The notes under the pieces are model-generated. The model was not told where the DNA came from. It did no database searches and saw only the letters and a program-made list of their open reading frames with translations. Made by a program: the position numbers and the translations under genes. Below are positions 13,339 through 26,720 of a stretch of 34,849 nt of DNA, one piece after another. The stretch lies in NCBI GenBank assembly GCA_030679145.1, contig JAUXTU010000024.1, positions 1 through 34,849 on the forward strand. Reading direction: 5' to 3'. How positions within the stretch are numbered: the first letter of the stretch is position 1; each line of letters begins with the position of its first letter. The DNA is from Bacteroidota bacterium. Its GTDB lineage: Bacteria > Bacteroidota > Ignavibacteria > UBA10030 > UBA8401.

Positions 13339-13941
13339 TTACCGATGTGTAATAAGACTGATTGCTTCAGCGCGAGTTGCGGCATTTTGCAGTACCCCGC
13401 GAACGACGCTGGTGGTTGTCCGCGCCTGCGATTTTTTAACACCACGCATTGACATACATAAGTGCTCGCAATCAATAATCACAATAACACCGAGTGGATC
13501 AAGGATTTCAACTAGGGCATCAGCAATCTGAGTTGTTAAACGCTCTTGAACTTGTGGGCGCTTAGCATATACATCAACTAATCGCGCCAACTTTGAAAGG
13601 CCGGTGATTTTTCCCTGTGGGATGTAGCCAATATGTGCAACCCCATGAAATGGCGTTAAGTGGTGCTCGCAATGTGAAAACACTTCAATATCTCGAACAA
13701 TCACGAGCTCTTCGTGACCGATATCAAATGTAGTTGTTAATACATCTTCGGGCGCCTGCCAAAGGCCACCAAAGTTTTCCTTCATTGCGCGCGCGACGCG
13801 CTCAGGAGTCTCCTTAAGGCCATCGCGATCTGGATCTTCACCAAGTGCCAATAAGAGTTCACGCACAGCACGTTCGGCGCGCGCTTGATCATATGGACCA
13901 GTTGCCCGGCCGTCGGTGACTGAAACTTTATTGATTGTCAC
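13339..13941 (-). CDS. folE: GTP cyclohydrolase I
   Basis: First enzyme of folate synthesis, GTP to dihydroneopterin triphosphate; 200 residues, normal size. The zinc site is intact ([13 protein letters not shown] and [13 protein letters not shown] supply Cys, His and Cys). Other family blocks are [38 protein letters not shown] and the C-terminal [12 protein letters not shown]. The first 18 residues are variable. Its start lies inside the last 14 bases of ftsH, so it is probably coupled to it. With folP, folB and folK downstream it completes a contiguous folate set. Confidence 0.97.
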
Positions 13942-16036
13942 TTGGGGCCTTCTTGCGGCGCACTGGCTTCTTTACTTCAACGACAGCAACTCGCTCTGGA
14001 ACTTCAACTGGTGGTTGCTCAGATGGAATACGAGTAACTGATCCAGTCCAAGCTGGACGCGAAGTAACGGCCTTTACTTTCTTAAAGATCTTTGCGATTT
14101 CATCCTTATTGAGCGTCTCTTTATCGAGGAGCTCTAAAACCCTTTCATCTAAAATCTTACGGTTTGCTACCAAGATATCAAAGGCCTCTTGGTGGGCGTT
14201 TTCAATAAGTTTGCGGATTTCACGATCGACAACGCCTGCGATGCTTTCTGAATAATCACGTTGGTGACCAAAGTCGCGCCCCATAAATGGAGCATCGCTA
14301 CTAGCACCTAATTTAATGGCACCGATTGCTTCCGTCATTCCATACTGTGTAACCATTGCGCGGGCGAGTCCTGTTGCCTTTTCAATGTCATTTGATGCAC
14401 CTGTTGATGGATCGTGGAAAATTAACTCTTCTGCAGCGCGTCCACCAAGTGAGTACGCCAACTGATCAAGTAGTTGATTGCGCGTCGTTGAGTAACGATC
14501 TTCATCAGGAAGAATCATTGTGTACCCAAGAGCGCGACCACGCGGCATGATTGTAATCTTGTGAACTGGATCGGTATGCGGAAGTGCGTGTGCGACAAGT
14601 GCGTGACCGGCTTCGTGATAAGCCGTTACACGGCGCTCATCATCGCTCATAATCCGTGATTTTCGTTGTGGGCCGGCCATAACGCGATCAATGGCTTCGT
14701 CTAGTTCAGAATTTGAAATTACTTTCTTCCTTTCGCGCGCAGTTAAAAGTGCGGCCTCATTAAGAACATTGGCAAGATCAGCACCTGTAAAACCTGGAGT
14801 GCGGCGTGCATAGTCAATAAGTTTTACATCATCCCCAAGTGGTTTGTTCTTGGCATGTACTGCCAAGATTGCTTCGCGTCCCTTTAGATCAGGGCGGTCA
14901 ACTGCAATCTGTCGATCAAAACGTCCTGGGCGCAACAATGCCGGATCTAAAATATCGGGACGGTTAGTCGCAGCGATAAGAATTACCTTTGTGTTTTCCT
15001 CAAAGCCATCCATCTCAACTAATAACTGATTGAGTGTTTGTTCGCGCTCATCATGACCGCCACCCATTCCTGTACCACGTTGGCGACCGACGGCATCAAT
15101 CTCATCTACGAAAACAATTGCTGGGGCATTCTCTTTAGCTTGACTAAATAAATCGCGCACACGCGCTGCACCGACACCGACAAACATTTCAACAAAGTCC
15201 GCACCGCTGATAGAGAAGAAAGGAACAGCCGCTTCTCCCGCAACTGCGCGTGCAAGCAATGTTTTACCTGTACCCGGAGGACCAAGCAGCAAGACACCGC
15301 GAGGAATTTTTCCACCGAGCTTTTGGAACTTTGCCGGATCTCTCAAGAACTCAATTACTTCCTGCAACTCAACTTTTGCTTCGTCTGCACCGGCAACATC
15401 TGCAAAGGTGATTCGGATTTGTCCTTCAGTCAACATTTTTGCACGGCTCTTCCCAAAAGAGAAAATTCCTTTTGTGCCGCCTCCGCCCCCCTGCATTCTG
15501 CGGAAAATAAATATCCAGATGGCGAGGATAATGAGCCACGGCAATGCACTGATAAGCATATTCGTCCAAAGACCGTCATCTTTAGAAATGTTGAATGCAA
15601 CATTGTGTTCGGTCCATTGTGAGATGACTGCATCATTGATTTCGGTATAGGGAAGTGTGAGCGTGAATTTTTCTACTCGAACTCGTTTTCCGCCGGGTGT
15701 TGTAATTTCCTGCGCTTCGCGCATGATGCCGTGAAAATCGAAATCATTGAGGTTCGATTTTTTGATCGTTGCTTTTGCGATCTGATTATTTTTGAGGAAT
15801 TCCTGATACTGTGTAAATGAAACATCATATTCAGTCGCTTCAGCACTTTTGAAGATGGTCATTATAAGGAATACTGCCATAATAATTGCAGACCAGCTGA
15901 GTACAACACGGAAAACTTTCCCCCAATTGAACTCATCGTCATTCCGATTCGGCAGTTTTGTTTTTTTCATCTTCGGCAAGAACGGACGTTTTTCATTTTT
16001 TTTGCTGTTCTGCTCGTTTTTATTTTCTTCTGACAT
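13928..16036 (-). CDS. ftsH: ATP-dependent zinc metalloprotease FtsH (hybrid of two lineages)
   Basis: Membrane-anchored AAA+ protease, 702 residues from the chosen ATG (GGAGAGAAG upstream). A charged N-terminal tail of about 40 residues, rich in Lys, Asn and Glu, precedes TM1 at 43-62. The periplasmic domain spans 63-157 and TM2 160-178, with the GGGG linker at 183-187. Walker A GPPGTGKT is at 252-259, Walker B VFVDEID near 308-314 and the zinc motif HEAGH at 474-478. The N-terminal tail, the [20 protein letters not shown] linker and [19 protein letters not shown] look like Bacteroidota/Chlorobi FtsH. From about residue 298 on ([36 protein letters not shown] near the end) it looks actinobacterial. 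The frame is unbroken across the change. The gene may not exist as such in any cell. Confidence 0.93.
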
Positions 16037-16080
16037 ACTTCTTCTCTCCAAACTAATTATTTGAAACATTGTTGTCTCTC

Positions 16081-21895: not shown

Positions 21896-23143
21896 TTAGC
21901 AACCCCCCGCAACCTTCTTCACTAATTTCGTTGGTTTTGCCATCGAATTTTTAGCCACTTTTATCATCGCTGCAAGAGTAATACTTGCTTTAGTTCGAAA
22001 CCGCTCTGTATCAATCGCTTGTTGTGCATCCACATTGATTATATGTTGTTGAAGATTTTCTGATGAAATATTTGCGAATGAACATTGGTTTGTTACGGGT
22101 TGCAAACGAATGATTGCGCTCATAAATGAGGGGAGGCCGTTGCATAAAACATGAATATTCTCATATCCTAATTCCCGAGCTATCAATGCTGCAATTCGTT
22201 CTTCATTCTCGTTGTTTCCAACAAAAACTTTTTTCTTGTGCCGCTGTCCAAGAACTTCACTGAATTCTTTTTGGAAGATCTGTTTCTGTTCAATGTTGAT
22301 TGAGCCGGGAAGTGCCATTGCAGCAAATTCATTCTGCGAACGGACATCAATGATTGTCAATTTGGGATCCTTATCAATGATTCGAAATGCGAGTTCATCC
22401 GTAGTCATTTCTTTTACGGAGTGCGCTCGAAGGAATTCTTCATTCGATATTTTGTTAAACAATCGTTCCTTATAATCTGGTAAAAAGAGCAGTGCTATTC
22501 CGACAAGCAGAATACCGACTCCTGCAAGGCGATGATGTGTTGTATTGAAAGATTTTGCAGGTCCTTCGGGGTTGACTTTCTTTTCGATCATCGTTGTCAT
22601 CATAAATGCACCGACTGCAACAGCGATGAGTATCAATGCAAACAATCCTTGTGAAATTCCGATTGAATTAAAGATGCGAATATTTCCAAGCGCGCTTGCA
22701 TTTGTAATCCCTTCAAACCACGGATACATTTCAGCATATGCAAACACGCCGATCAATCCTCCGCCGACAAAAAACATTGCATCAATTTTACCAATTGCCA
22801 TTCCTGTAATGCTTGTTCCGGGACAATATCCGCCTATGATGAATCCGAATCCCATGATAACACCGCCAAGGATTGCCGCCTGAAGAAATGTTGGATTGAT
22901 ATAAACAAAATCAATATCAAGCCAGCCAAGATAACCAAGAATGATAACCCCGCTCATTGCGGTTACACCCGCAGTAAAGAACACGCGAAGTACTGTAAAA
23001 TCATAACCGTAAAAAACACCGGCAAGTTTTTTTGAAGAAGAAAATCCTGCCTGTTCAAGAATGAATCCGAACGCAATACCGATGACCAATGCTACGATCA
23101 GATTCAATTCATCGCTGATAAGATTTGGAACTAATGGAAACAT
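21896..23143 (-). CDS. YeeE/YedE-family transporter fused to a rhodanese-like domain
   Basis: Membrane protein of 415 residues. Residues 1-222 hold several hydrophobic segments with the YeeE/YedE signature GFGFIIGGYCPGTSITG; Cys107 lies in the conserved pore motif of this family, which includes the thiosulfate importer TsuA. A rhodanese-like domain occupies about 242-348 (KLTIIDVRSQNEFAAMALPGSINI). The loop that should hold the catalytic cysteine reads FVGNNENEER, so the domain is probably inactive as a sulfurtransferase and may bind sulfur species or partners. The last 65 residues end in Gly-Gly-Cys. I start at ATG 23143 (AGAGG upstream), because the 40 codons upstream simply read through a palindromic repeat. 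It is the last gene of the octaheme cytochrome operon. Confidence 0.9.
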   Translation of the reverse strand: MFPLVPNLISDELNLIVALVIGIAFGFILEQAGFSSSKKLAGVFYGYDFTVLRVFFTAGVTAMSGVIILGYLGWLDIDFVYINPTFLQAAILGGVIMGFGFIIGGYCPGTSITGMAIGKIDAMFFVGGGLIGVFAYAEMYPWFEGITNASALGNIRIFNSIGISQGLFALILIAVAVGAFMMTTMIEKKVNPEGPAKSFNTTHHRLAGVGILLVGIALLFLPDYKERLFNKISNEEFLRAHSVKEMTTDELAFRIIDKDPKLTIIDVRSQNEFAAMALPGSINIEQKQIFQKEFSEVLGQRHKKKVFVGNNENEERIAALIARELGYENIHVLCNGLPSFMSAIIRLQPVTNQCSFANISSENLQQHIINVDAQQAIDTERFRTKASITLAAMIKVAKNSMAKPTKLVKKVAGGC

Positions 23144-23175
23144 AAAAGCCTCTTTTAAATAATTATATTTTTTTT

Positions 23176-23254
23176 GACCCCCTCTTAATCTCCCCCTAAA
23201 AGGGGGAGAAAGAATTTTCCCTCCCCTTATAGGGGAGGGATTAAGGGAGGGGTC
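23176..23254. repeat. GC-rich palindromic element, copy 1
   Basis: GACCCC...GGGGTC ends enclose two C-rich/G-rich hairpins: CTCCCCCT with AGGGGGAG, and CCTCCCC with GGGGAGG. It fills the gap between the two YeeE genes and ends exactly on the stop codon of the first. It shares its core with the copy at 24480-24541 (CTCCCCC, then AGGGGGAGAAA, then CCCTCCCC). Confidence 0.75.
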
Positions 23255-23766
23255 TATATCCAAAGTTTTCTAACAAAGTATGCAACGGCATATCCGGTTC
23301 CGAAAATTGCCATCATTGTTATAATGCCTCCGGTGGAAAGGACTGCCATTCCGCTTAATGCAGCACCGCTTGTGCATCCTCGCGCGAATTGTGCACCCAT
23401 CCCAAAGAGCAGTCCGCCGATCAATGCAAAACCGAGCCTCATTGAATTGGTGATACGAGGACCCCGCTCAGTGACAAAATTCAATCGATCAGACACAACG
23501 CCGGAAAGAAATCCGCCGATGATCACGCCAAGCACTTCAAACACAAGCCATGCTTTCAATGGATTGTCGTGAAGTGATTTGAGATTTTCAGAATAGAATG
23601 TTGATTCGTGTGCATGAGTCGGCGCAATGGTGCTCACCGTTGCTACAACAGCACTCTTAATTGCACCGCTTGCACCAAGTCCGCGACCGGTAATAACAAT
23701 TGTTGCTAACAATGTTAAACCGAGCAAAAACCCTGCAAGATAAGGATTCATATACGTTGTTTTCAT
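23254..23766 (-). CDS. YeeE/YedE-family membrane protein (sulfur-compound transporter half)
   Basis: A 170-residue membrane protein with about four hydrophobic segments and the family signature FGMGAQFARGCTSGAALSG, where Cys131 is the conserved pore cysteine. Short YeeE/YedE proteins usually occur in pairs, each contributing one half of a transporter resembling TsuA. Here the second half is the next gene, which carries the GGYCPGT version of the motif. The ATG overlaps the stop of the cytochrome b gene by four bases. A periplasmic-type loop (residues 48-70) contains a His-rich THAHES stretch. Sulfur-compound transport is known for the family; thiosulfate specifically is inferred from the reductase upstream. 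Confidence 0.9.
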   Translation of the reverse strand: MKTTYMNPYLAGFLLGLTLLATIVITGRGLGASGAIKSAVVATVSTIAPTHAHESTFYSENLKSLHDNPLKAWLVFEVLGVIIGGFLSGVVSDRLNFVTERGPRITNSMRLGFALIGGLLFGMGAQFARGCTSGAALSGMAVLSTGGIITMMAIFGTGYAVAYFVRKLWI

Positions 23767-24434
23767 TTTGTTGCCTCTATTACATTCTCCGAAATTACTT
23801 TTTGTTCGGAATGGTGAATGATTGTTGTTTCATGTTCCAACACTTCGTATCCGGTGATCATTGCTTTCAAATTGGATGTGAGTGTACGCCCAGTGGTTAT
23901 CAAATACACATGCGTGATAATAAACGATATAAGAATGAACGCCCCGGCAGTATGCAGAAATGCAATTGTCCCTAAATTCTCGATGTTTAGACTTTGAATT
24001 CCGCTTGATTGTGGATACCGATAGAACATATACAGCAATCCGGAAAAGACCATGATCGGAATGACAAGGATCTTTAATGCAAGGTAGACCAATCGCTGCA
24101 AAGGATTTAATTTTGTTAATGCTGTTTTTTTTGTGGGGTGCGGTGTGTTGCGAAAAATTCCCGTAATATAATATTCAACTTGTGCACGCAAATGCTTACG
24201 TGTGGGAAGATACTGTCTCCATTCTCCGGTAGTGAAGTGCCAAAAGATTGCTAGACCGATCAAAATTAGAAACATGATTGCTGCGGTATTGTGAAAAGTT
24301 ACGGCTTGTTCAAAACCGAAAAAGTTCAGTGAGCCATGGATCTCAAACCCGGTTAACGCAAGAAAAAAGATCAGCATTGATTGCATCCAATGCCAGAAAC
24401 GGTTAAAACGGCTATAGACTAATATCTTTTTCAT
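23763..24434 (-). CDS. Membrane cytochrome b, b561/thiosulfate-reductase subunit type
   Basis: A 223-residue diheme-type cytochrome b with four membrane helices, likely to oxidise quinol and pass electrons across to a periplasmic cytochrome c. Candidate heme-ligand histidines are in the expected helices: RFWHWMQ (helix 1), TFHNTAA and FWHFTTG (helix 2), and FLHTAGAF with ITHVYL (helix 4). The opening YSRFNRFWHW is typical of b-type subunits of thiosulfate reductase, formate dehydrogenase and hydrogenase. It lies between the octaheme cytochrome gene and the YeeE genes and overlaps the first YeeE gene by four bases. This makes it the probable electron donor to the octaheme protein. Confidence 0.9.
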   Translation of the reverse strand: MKKILVYSRFNRFWHWMQSMLIFFLALTGFEIHGSLNFFGFEQAVTFHNTAAIMFLILIGLAIFWHFTTGEWRQYLPTRKHLRAQVEYYITGIFRNTPHPTKKTALTKLNPLQRLVYLALKILVIPIMVFSGLLYMFYRYPQSSGIQSLNIENLGTIAFLHTAGAFILISFIITHVYLITTGRTLTSNLKAMITGYEVLEHETTIIHHSEQKVISENVIEATK

Positions 24435-24479
24435 AATTATTTCCTTGATGCTTGGGATCTCGTTTTTTTAATTTTAATA

Positions 24480-24541
24480 ACCCCCTCTTTGGTTCTCCCC
24501 CTTTCAGGGGGAGAAAATTCCCTCCCCCAAAGGGTGGGGTC
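24480..24541. repeat. GC-rich palindromic element, copy 2
   Basis: This 62-base element between the octaheme cytochrome and cytochrome b genes has CTCCCCCT paired with AGGGGGAG and a CCCTCCCC/GGGTGGGG second hairpin, and ends in GGGGTC. It is a shorter relative of the element at 23176-23254. Both lie at gene borders within the same operon. Confidence 0.7.
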
Positions 24542-24545
24542 GATT

Positions 24546-26099
24546 TTAATTTTTCTTTTTTGAAATAATTCTAACAACTGCGTGTATAGTTACACCAAAT
24601 AGCGAAAGCATGATCGTGCCGAAACCAAACATTTCTATTGCAGCATTCTGATCTCTCCCGGGGATATAGAAATCTTTCAAGTTGGCAATGCGGCTGTTTG
24701 TTTGCGTATGGCATTCATTGCACTGAACGGTCTTTGCTTTTGGAGAAACCATGTGATTGATCGGCCAGTACATTTCAGTCTTTGCAAATGCATATTTCCC
24801 GCTGTATGGGAGTCCGACATAATCCATTCCATGTTGTATGGATGAATTCCAGTCAAAATCTTTCCAGAACCCTCCTTCACCTACTTTATTTGCATATGTT
24901 TTTGGCTGCACGACAAATTTATTGATGGGGTCATACGGCTGAATGGCGCGATGAACTTTTACAGGAATGATCTTTGCGTCCGGATCATCATAACTGCCAT
25001 GAAGTGTATTCATTTGGATCGGAGAGTCTGCGCTGACCGAGTCACCGGTAAGATAATGCGATGCTGTTCCGTTGAACCAAATATATTCCGGCTGCACATT
25101 TCGTCCCCAGGTAAATGTTCCTTTAATGGAGGCATACGTAATATTGCCGAGTGAATCAAAAGTTTCAAACGGCTCACCGTTCTTCAATTTTCCTGCGGTG
25201 GACCAGTCCCATGCAAGTTTCGTTGAATTCACTTTTGCGTACTCCGGAATGTGGCACGTCTGACAAGCAACTTTCACGGTGTGTTCGTTGATAACACTGT
25301 TGGTGTGCGGCGTTTCAGTATGGCATTGTTCGCATGTTGAACGATTGCGGTTCATTGATGAAAGGGAATATACCTTCCCAAGCATCTGATGTTTTTCTGT
25401 TTTATGACAATCCACGCAATCAAGATTTCCGCCATCGGTTCCCATATGAACATCAACGTCGCGATGAGTGTCGAACAATGCTTTCTCAAGATCACCATGC
25501 TTCACATTGTTTCCGCCGCCGCCGAAGAAATGACATGTTCCGCAATTTGATTTTGTCGGTCTGCCGACGCGTTGAGCAACGAACGCAAGATCGACGGAAA
25601 GATCCGGCATTCCTGCACCGGAGGATTTTTTCACGTACGTATCGCTGTTATCGTGGCACGCAAGACAGTCAACATTGTTGGCATTGGTAAAGTCAAAATC
25701 CTTATCACCCCAGCCGTAACCAATATGGCATTTGTTGCAGCTTTGTTCGTTGGTGTTAATGCCGATACAAAAATTATTAAGGATATTTTTTTTGCCGACA
25801 TAACGAATACCGCGACCTTCAATATATTCTTCACGCTCCCAATTCCAGTGTGAAGATTTCATCACTTCCGTATGACGTTCATTATGGCAGTCAATACAAG
25901 CGGCGGTAACATCCTGCGGTTTAACAAATTTTTTCCTCAATTGCGAGAATTTAGAATGATCGACAGAAGGTTTTTCTTTTTTGAATTGTGTCTTCAGTTC
26001 AGCAAGAGGAGTTGGTTCAACTTCTTTTTTAGTGATGGTTGCTATAAAGAAAAGTGCAATGATTGCCATTGCGAGCAAAGGAATAATAAATCGTTTCAT
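24546..26099 (-). CDS. Octaheme c-type cytochrome, tetrathionate reductase family
   Basis: Periplasm-facing multiheme reductase of 517 residues. Eight CxxCH heme sites start at residues 68, 121, 145, 186, 228, 256, 279 and 460, the count and uneven spacing of the octaheme tetrathionate reductase (OTR) family. Shewanella OTR reduces tetrathionate, nitrite and hydroxylamine and uses a lysine-ligated active-site heme. Here all eight motifs end in His. A free cysteine at 111 just before the second site (NNFCIGINTNEQSCNKCH) and lysines 157-158 are candidates for its active-site Cys and Lys ligand. Unusually, it has a membrane segment at each end (5-20 and about 488-510). It follows the MerR gene by 38 bases and precedes the cytochrome b gene. 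Substrate could be tetrathionate, another sulfur oxyanion or nitrite. Confidence 0.92.
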   Translation of the reverse strand: MKRFIIPLLAMAIIALFFIATITKKEVEPTPLAELKTQFKKEKPSVDHSKFSQLRKKFVKPQDVTAACIDCHNERHTEVMKSSHWNWEREEYIEGRGIRYVGKKNILNNFCIGINTNEQSCNKCHIGYGWGDKDFDFTNANNVDCLACHDNSDTYVKKSSGAGMPDLSVDLAFVAQRVGRPTKSNCGTCHFFGGGGNNVKHGDLEKALFDTHRDVDVHMGTDGGNLDCVDCHKTEKHQMLGKVYSLSSMNRNRSTCEQCHTETPHTNSVINEHTVKVACQTCHIPEYAKVNSTKLAWDWSTAGKLKNGEPFETFDSLGNITYASIKGTFTWGRNVQPEYIWFNGTASHYLTGDSVSADSPIQMNTLHGSYDDPDAKIIPVKVHRAIQPYDPINKFVVQPKTYANKVGEGGFWKDFDWNSSIQHGMDYVGLPYSGKYAFAKTEMYWPINHMVSPKAKTVQCNECHTQTNSRIANLKDFYIPGRDQNAAIEMFGFGTIMLSLFGVTIHAVVRIISKKKN

Positions 26100-26137
26100 A
26101 GTATATGTTTTGGTAAACCTTCATAGAAATTTATTTT

Positions 26138-26641
26138 TCACAAAACAACTCCCACAGTATCTTGATTATTCACCAGTGGTTGTTTCAAGAGTTGTTCGTG
26201 TTGAACAAGCGTAATATTTTTAATTTGTTCTTTTATGTATCCACAATCGCTGGAACGTTGATAGACTTCGCATAATCTGCAATCACGTTTGGAACAAGCA
26301 GAATGTTCATGTGCATACGTCCAACATCCGCCAATATGATTGCTGAATGCGGGACATACACTGCGTTCTTCAGAAGAACATTTAATTATATCCCAACATG
26401 GAATCATCCCGTGAAGTTGCTTCATTCCGCCAATGCTGATTTTGTCTTCATTGATTGCTTTTCGAATGCAGCGAAGCCTTTCAATATCGGATTCCGAATA
26501 GATTCTCTGATTTCCATCGGACTTCGTCGTTATTATCAACCCCTCGCTTTCATAAAGTCGAAGTGTTTGCACAGAAACGCCGAGTATTCGTGCTGCGGTT
26601 CCGATTGAATAAACTGGTATATCTTGATTTTTCGTTGTCAT
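26138..26641 (-). CDS. MerR-family regulator with C-terminal cysteine-rich two-CW domain
   Basis: A 167-residue DNA-binding regulator. Residues 10-75 form the MerR winged helix (VYSIGTAARILGVSVQTLRLYESEGLI, then QRIYSESDIERLRCI). The dimerisation helix that normally follows is replaced by a cysteine-rich segment at 82-133 with Cys at 82, 88, 96, 106, 116, 121, 124 and 133. Two are in the pairs Cys-Trp (82-83 and 106-107), matching a two-CW domain. Such an arrangement could bind an iron-sulfur cluster or zinc, or react with sulfur species, making it a candidate redox or sulfur sensor. I chose the ATG at 26641; a frame 11 codons longer exists. It heads the operon with the octaheme cytochrome and YeeE genes, and probably controls it and itself. 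Confidence 0.88.
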   Translation of the reverse strand: MTTKNQDIPVYSIGTAARILGVSVQTLRLYESEGLIITTKSDGNQRIYSESDIERLRCIRKAINEDKISIGGMKQLHGMIPCWDIIKCSSEERSVCPAFSNHIGGCWTYAHEHSACSKRDCRLCEVYQRSSDCGYIKEQIKNITLVQHEQLLKQPLVNNQDTVGVVL

Positions 26642-26720
26642 AGTTACATTTATAATTAGCAAGTTATATGCCATTAAAAAATATAATCAATTTAGGATAT
26701 TAGGAAGGAATCTTCCCCCT

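What the first reader, a model, noticed from the sequence alone, without database searches (positions are those of the whole stretch)
21896..26641. Candidate sulfur-oxyanion respiration and uptake operon
Five same-strand genes, with gaps of 38 to 111 bases or four-base overlaps, combine a MerR regulator with a cysteine-rich tail, an octaheme OTR-family cytochrome, a cytochrome b quinol dehydrogenase candidate, and two YeeE/YedE transporter halves, one fused to rhodanese. Each family is known. The set suggests quinol to cytochrome b to octaheme reductase, with the reduced product (for example thiosulfate) carried in by the YeeE pair. Coupling extracellular tetrathionate reduction to product import under a thiol or Fe-S sensor is, to my knowledge, not a described system.
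Basis: partly seen in the sequence, partly recalled or inferred. Interest (0 to 1): 0.8.

Follow-up and report, generated by a model that had tools for sequence, protein, structure and literature searches.

The report
Sulfur-reductase operon with GGC swinging arm
These genes form a conserved sulfur-respiration module whose overlooked key part is probably a membrane protein with a flexible tail ending in one cysteine, which may carry sulfur to or from a multi-heme enzyme, a layout found in many uncultured bacteria and not described in the literature searched.

Summary
Five minus-strand genes (21896-26674) encode MerR, an octaheme OTR-family cytochrome, cytochrome b and a split YeeE pair. OTR-cytb-YeeE1-YeeE2 is conserved across Ignavibacteria, Bacteroidales, Acidobacteria, Planctomycetales and other groups.

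The rhodanese domain fused to YeeE2 has lost its catalytic Cys in all homologues, yet 53 of 55 full-length proteins end in GGC(x0-2) on a flexible tail, predicted periplasmic. Bacteroidales operons carry separate rhodaneses, many with a lipobox, that also end in GGC. GGC tails are 26-fold enriched (odds ratio) near OTR. In genomes without OTR the same YeeE/GGC module (sometimes with the same Cys-rich MerR) follows a PhsA/PsrA-type Mo enzyme operon. The shared module supports sulfur respiration and argues against a purely nitrogen role.

Best reading: quinol, cytochrome b and membrane-anchored OTR reduce sulfur bound to, or delivered by, a SoxY-like GGC arm, and YeeE handles the product. "Extracellular" is wrong (inner-membrane anchored). 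TsuA-style thiosulfate import is doubtful because this genome has no TusA/YeeD. Substrate and direction remain untested. OTR plus cytochrome b was already described. The GGC carrier and the module swap were not found in the literature searched.

The parts
26138..26674 (-). MerR-family regulator with a Cys-rich tail (ATG at 26641 preferred); 8 tail Cys invariant
   Evidence: PF13411 59.6 bits; A4 alignment, C82 C88 C96 C106 C116 C121 C124 C133 invariant in 11 sequences including three from Phs/Psr operons; AF2 pLDDT 85
24546..26099 (-). Membrane-anchored octaheme OTR-family cytochrome, 517 aa, eight CxxCH, C-terminal TM helix
   Evidence: TIGR04315 587 bits; 1SP3 E=7e-132; C111, K200, N108 (1SP3 Cys64, Lys153, Asn61 by alignment) invariant; TM tail in all cytb-linked OTRs
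23763..24434 (-). Cytochrome b (b561/hydrogenase type), probable quinol dehydrogenase for OTR
   Evidence: PF01292 89 bits, thiosulfate reductase cytochrome B model 95 bits (below cut-off); His15, 48, 99, 161, 175 invariant in 94/94
23254..23766 (-). YeeE1, PmpA-like C-terminal half of a YeeE/YedE transporter, conserved Cys131
   Evidence: PF04143 profile 175-308; TsuA structure 8k1r E=1e-7, aligned over the region around TsuA Cys293; C131 63/63
21896..23143 (-). YeeE2-pseudorhodanese-GGC: PmpB-like N-terminal half, periplasmic pseudo-rhodanese, flexible tail
   Evidence: PF04143 profile 9-182 and PF00581; positive-inside pattern; AF2 model
22109..22420 (-). Pseudo-rhodanese domain lacking the catalytic Cys (KVFVGNNENEER)
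   Evidence: Cys absent in 55/55 full-length homologues; AF2 pLDDT mostly above 90 and Foldseek rhodanese hits
21899..21907 (-). C-terminal Gly-Gly-Cys, proposed sulfur-carrying swinging arm
   Evidence: 53/55 end in GGC(x0-2); invariant in A2; residues 407-417 of the AF2 model pLDDT below 50

Best explanation
The operon encodes an inner-membrane sulfur-respiration module. Quinol is oxidised by the cytochrome b, electrons pass to a periplasmic octaheme reductase held to the membrane by its C-terminal helix, and the reductase acts on a sulfur compound (tetrathionate or another S-S oxyanion) that is bound to, or delivered by, a single cysteine at the end of a flexible GGC tail. That tail is on a pseudo-rhodanese domain fused to one half of a split YeeE channel, so sulfur left on the arm could be passed to the YeeE pair and across the membrane. 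The Cys-rich MerR probably controls expression. Shown here: gene content, conservation, loss of the rhodanese Cys, invariance of GGC, swap of the module between OTR and PhsA/PsrA-type operons. Inferred: carrier role, substrate, electron direction, transport, regulator signal.
For: GGC tail in 53/55 YeeE2R across several phyla while the rhodanese Cys is lost. Separate GGC-tailed rhodaneses, many with a lipobox, in Bacteroidales OTR operons, including several with no YeeE2 in the locus. GGC-tailed ORFs 104/705 near OTR versus 4/613 elsewhere (Fisher p=8e-25). Same YeeE/GGC module downstream of PhsA/PsrA-type Mo enzyme plus 4Fe-4S plus NrfD where OTR is not next to it. Both enzymes and GGC rhodaneses in one cluster in L124. 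OTR site residues conserved. Membrane-anchored OTR with invariant cytb His. GGC contexts concentrate in one part of the cytb-linked OTR clade. Precedents: the SoxY arm carries Sox intermediates (PMC5336275); soxY/soxZ next to otr in lucinid symbionts (PMC11237559); periplasmic rhodaneses supply sulfur to Psr (PMC5437934).
Against: No biochemistry. S. oneidensis OTR acts on free tetrathionate, nitrite and hydroxylamine in vitro without any carrier (cited in PMC4484225). Some cytb-linked OTR operons (Chlorobium, Paracoccus, Photobacterium, some Bacteroidales) have no GGC protein within reach, so the arm is not required by all OTRs. The window genome lacks PhsA/PsrA above cut-off and TusA, so the fate of the product is unclear. 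YeeE2R's A2 model was built from OTR neighbours, which inflates the co-occurrence somewhat.
Confidence: 0.6

Rival explanations
1. One reading: OTR reduces free tetrathionate, and the YeeE pair imports the free thiosulfate product for assimilation; the rhodanese and its tail are only an accessory sulfurtransferase.
For: OTR family and conserved site; split YeeE pair of PmpAB type with conserved Cys; sulfur context.
Against: Rhodanese Cys absent in all 55 full-length homologues while GGC is kept. No TusA/YeeD in the genome, although E. coli YeeE needs it in vivo (PMC11073785). OTR is membrane anchored, not extracellular. Several Bacteroidales operons keep the GGC rhodanese without YeeE2 in the locus.
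Confidence: 0.2
2. Nitrogen role: the octaheme enzyme is a nitrite/hydroxylamine reductase (or detoxifier) and its YeeE neighbours are incidental.
For: S. oneidensis OTR reduces nitrite and hydroxylamine (cited in PMC4484225). Paracoccus OTR-cytb on pFER4 lies near a nitrate reductase alpha gene.
Against: The YeeE/GGC module is tied to OTR in 33/36 genomes and is otherwise found with PhsA/PsrA-type operons. GGC-tailed rhodaneses are a sulfur signature. The Paracoccus and Photobacterium operons lack YeeE and GGC and branch separately.
Confidence: 0.12
3. Reverse direction: the module oxidises reduced sulfur on the GGC arm (Sox-like) and feeds electrons into the quinone pool.
For: The GGC arm resembles SoxY, which serves oxidation (PMC5336275); soxY/soxZ lie next to otr in sulfur-oxidising symbionts (PMC11237559).
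Against: The alternative partner of the same module is a PhsA/PsrA-type enzyme with NrfD, a reductase family. The GGC-tailed proteins recognised are rhodaneses, not SoxY. The genomes are largely of anaerobic-type lineages (inference).
Confidence: 0.12
4. The GGC Cys is structural: it forms a disulfide with OTR, YeeE or a partner, or is an assembly/anchoring signal.
For: Only conservation and position are shown; no chemistry is demonstrated.
Against: Tail is flexible (pLDDT below 50) after a variable linker, as in a mobile arm. It is found on several rhodanese architectures, a sulfur-transfer fold, and many of these already have a lipobox anchor at the other end.
Confidence: 0.15

Closest known systems
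Octaheme tetrathionate reductase OTR of Shewanella oneidensis (PDB 1SP3)
   Same: Eight CxxCH, TIGR04315 family, conserved positions of 1SP3 Cys64, Lys153 and Asn61
   Different: Here anchored by a C-terminal TM helix and paired with cytochrome b and GGC proteins; Asp150 position is Asn; different clade from soluble OTRs
OTR plus cytochrome b561 clusters (Thermosulfurimonas dismutans, PMC4911364; Ignavibacteriae Ch128a, PMC7509429)
   Same: Same two-gene core and the same predicted quinol link
   Different: The retrieved passages of those papers do not mention YeeE, a pseudo-rhodanese, a GGC tail or MerR beside OTR
SoxYZ sulfur carrier
   Same: Cys on a swinging arm (PMC5336275), proposed to carry sulfur in the periplasm
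   Different: Rhodanese fold and membrane-fused, no SoxY domain found; predicted reductive use
Periplasmic rhodaneses feeding polysulfide reductase (Wolinella Sud, 1qxn; PMC5437934)
   Same: Periplasmic rhodanese next to a sulfur reductase; 1qxn is among the PDB hits of the YeeE2R profile
   Different: Window domain has no catalytic Cys; sulfur site is proposed at a GGC tail; enzyme partner is octaheme OTR
YeeE/TsuA, SoxT and PmpAB transporters (PMC11582611, PMC11073785)
   Same: Split halves match PmpB (N half) and PmpA (C half) with the conserved Cys
   Different: Fused to periplasmic pseudo-rhodanese with GGC; no TusA/YeeD in the genome

Membership tests
OTR family (TIGR04315) | Model score above cut-off and eight heme motifs | tested here: met
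   587 bits against 375; 8 CxxCH
OTR family (TIGR04315) | Catalytic-site Cys64, Lys153, Asn61 of 1SP3 | tested here: met
   C111, K200, N108 aligned and invariant; roles of these residues from own knowledge
OTR family (TIGR04315) | Reduces tetrathionate | not testable with these tools
   needs purified enzyme
Soluble Shewanella-type OTR | No membrane anchor | tested here: not met
   C-terminal TM helix, separate clade
YeeE/YedE (PF04143), PmpAB split type | Two halves matching N and C halves, one conserved Cys each | tested here: met
   C109 55/55, C131 63/63
TsuA/TsuB thiosulfate uptake system | TusA-like TsuB/YeeD partner | tested here: not met
   no PF01206 in own genome; 27 of 36 module genomes have none over cut-off
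Active rhodanese | Rhodanese fold | tested here: met
   PF00581 and Foldseek
Active rhodanese | Catalytic Cys in active-site loop | tested here: not met
   absent in 55/55
SoxY | C-terminal Cys arm of GGC type | tested here: met
   GGC(x0-2) in 53/55
SoxY | SoxY domain | tested here: not met
   only PF04143 and PF00581 above cut-off
SoxY | SoxZ partner | not tested
   no SoxZ-specific search was run
Sud-type periplasmic sulfurtransferase | Sulfur held on rhodanese active-site Cys | tested here: not met
   Cys missing in window protein

The most novel reading that the evidence does not exclude
A widespread form of sulfur respiration in which the substrate is covalently bound to a protein: octaheme OTR and PhsA/PsrA-type Mo reductases share interchangeable periplasmic carriers, (pseudo-)rhodaneses ending in a GGC swinging arm, which can be fused to a YeeE channel so that reduction and sulfur translocation are coupled on one protein.
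Probability: 0.4. Interest if true: 0.85.

Novelty: new variant of a known kind. Interest (0 to 1): 0.72.

Why it matters
The true substrate of OTR-family enzymes has been open since nitrite, hydroxylamine and tetrathionate all work in vitro. A conserved single-Cys arm encoded beside the enzyme makes a specific, testable proposal: the physiological substrate is carrier-bound sulfur. It also gives a marker (GGC-tailed rhodanese plus OTR or PhsA/PsrA) for a sulfur metabolism in many uncultured Ignavibacteria and Bacteroidota whose OTR genes are now annotated only as 'tetrathionate reductase'. The YeeE fusion would link a respiratory reductase directly to sulfur transport.

Tried and rejected
Reading the rhodanese as an active sulfurtransferase: rejected, because the catalytic Cys is absent in all full-length homologues. 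Cytoplasmic TusA hand-over as in TsuA/TsuB: disfavoured, no TusA in the genome. Thiosulfate as the end of a Phs pathway in this genome: no PhsA/PsrA above cut-off. Foldseek of the YeeE2R model listed only rhodaneses in the top rows, with no TsuA, probably because only half the channel was modelled. Three literature searches for rhodanese/YeeE/octaheme clusters and one for a GGC motif found no description of this arrangement; the library lacks most subscription papers and all preprints.
Full report
Observation. Family scans name them MerR, TIGR04315 octaheme cytochrome, PF01292 cytochrome b, and two PF04143 halves, the second with PF00581. OTR aligns to the solved Shewanella enzyme 1SP3 at E=7e-132. 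C111, K200 and N108 fall at 1SP3 Cys64, Lys153 and Asn61 and are invariant in 14 diverse OTRs; the Asp150 position is Asn here. That these are active-site residues rests on my own knowledge of the OTR papers.

Conservation. A scan with an OTR alignment alone gave 80 named loci; the order OTR, cytochrome b, YeeE1, YeeE2 recurs in Ignavibacteria, Bacteroidales, Acidobacteria, LCP-89, Chthonomonadia, Planctomycetales and Kapabacteria MAGs. In 395 Bacteroidota genomes, 55 have OTR over cut-off and 36 have full-length YeeE2R; 33 have both, 1.3-1.7 kb apart. MerR is upstream in many but not all Ignavibacteria-like loci.

The overlooked part. The rhodanese loop in YeeE2R has no Cys in any of 55 full-length homologues, but 53 end in GGC(x0-2); the aligned G-G-C columns are 54/54. 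In alignment A2 the tail before GGC is a variable linker. The AlphaFold model (numbered from two residues before the ATG-encoded Met) has a confident rhodanese fold at 244-347, a helix at 375-402, and a disordered end; Foldseek confirms the rhodanese fold. Loop charges alternate (0, 1.96, 0.05, 1.0, 1.02, 1.87 K/R), which places the rhodanese and tail in the periplasm. This is a prediction; loop 4 is ambiguous. In the split versions the rhodanese has an N-terminal membrane anchor or lipobox, which agrees.

Other architectures. In Bacteroidales operons, rhodaneses that follow cytochrome b also end in GGC. Single-domain ones keep an active-type CKKGxR Cys and most have a lipobox; others are tandem or pseudo-rhodaneses, up to three GGC proteins per locus. 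Of 60 GGC/EGC-tailed ORFs not strongly scored as YeeE2R, 57 match a GGC rhodanese query. GGC tails occur on 104 of 705 ORFs within the OTR neighbourhood and 4 of 613 outside (p=8e-25); ORFs are related by descent, so the p-value overstates independence. In some Bacteroidales the cytochrome b carries one to three PAS-like repeats at its C-terminus (by eye).

Module swap. Where the YeeE/GGC module is not next to OTR, it follows a roughly 750-aa Mo enzyme whose best NCBIfam model is thiosulfate reductase PhsA (450-536 bits, below the 694 cut-off), a 4Fe-4S subunit and NrfD. Three of these operons have the same MerR family with the same tail cysteines. In L124 both enzymes and GGC rhodaneses are in one cluster. 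So the YeeE/GGC module looks like an accessory for sulfur reductases, not specific to one enzyme.

OTR anatomy and tree. Every cytb-linked OTR has a C-terminal TM helix, and short OTRs without one have no cytochrome b found beside them. A tree of 106 OTRs separates Shewanella-like soluble OTRs from the anchored ones; within the anchored ones, Proteobacteria, Chlorobium and Planctomycete forms lacking GGC partners branch off first, on a midpoint-rooted quick tree. Cytochrome b keeps five invariant His in 94/94.

Mechanism. Shown: gene set, conservation, loss of rhodanese Cys, GGC invariance, module swap; membrane anchoring is predicted from sequence. Inferred: quinol to cytochrome b to OTR; the GGC Cys takes sulfur from tetrathionate or a related compound as a thiosulfonate or persulfide; OTR reduces it or the free substrate; the YeeE Cys pair (C109 of YeeE2R, C131 of YeeE1) may receive the remaining sulfur. 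Against simple import: no TusA/YeeD in this complete genome, and none over cut-off in 27 of 36 module genomes, while E. coli YeeE requires YeeD in vivo (PMC11073785).

Known and new. OTR plus cytochrome b was described in T. dismutans (PMC4911364) and an Ignavibacteriae MAG (PMC7509429). SoxY swinging arms (PMC5336275), soxYZ beside otr in symbionts (PMC11237559), and periplasmic rhodaneses with Psr (PMC5437934) are known. No paper found describes GGC-tailed rhodaneses or the YeeE fusion with OTR, within the limits of an open-licence library. I file it as a new variant of a known kind.

Assembly. The window is chimeric: own-genome contig C123 begins at ftsH aa 307 with 54% identity to the window's ftsH, and the genome holds two further Clp ATPases at 48-52%. 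The join is near 15.15 kb, 6.7 kb from the operon. The operon's own neighbourhood is confirmed by the congener G093, which has ppdK divergent from MerR-OTR-cytb-YeeE1-YeeE2R as here.

Noticed in passing
window 1 to about 15150; join inside ftsH 13928-16069: Contig chimera: actinobacterial-looking genes at 43-50% GC joined within ftsH to Ignavibacterial sequence at 35-44% GC; own contig C123 starts at ftsH aa 307.
   Followed up: partly
window 23144-23253 and 24435-24545: The two intergenic gaps hold GC-rich palindromic elements; the YeeE1-YeeE2 one has similar copies at several other places in the genome, REP-like.
   Followed up: partly
G000 C36:81714-82630 (L054 18029-19158): A second, short YeeE-like pair in the same genome, without rhodanese or GGC tail.
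   Followed up: no
L081, L110, L117 and others: Bacteroidales cytochrome b next to OTR carries one to three PAS-like repeats at the C-terminus, a possible redox or ligand sensor on the quinol dehydrogenase (by eye).
   Followed up: no
L078 5185-6453: Alginate-export type outer-membrane porin gene (PF13372) between cytochrome b and the GGC rhodaneses, perhaps for substrate entry.
   Followed up: no
L138 6919-8373, L139 7393-8055, L142 8116-8799: In some Phs/Psr-linked loci the tail is Lys-rich and ends in EGC rather than GGC.
   Followed up: no
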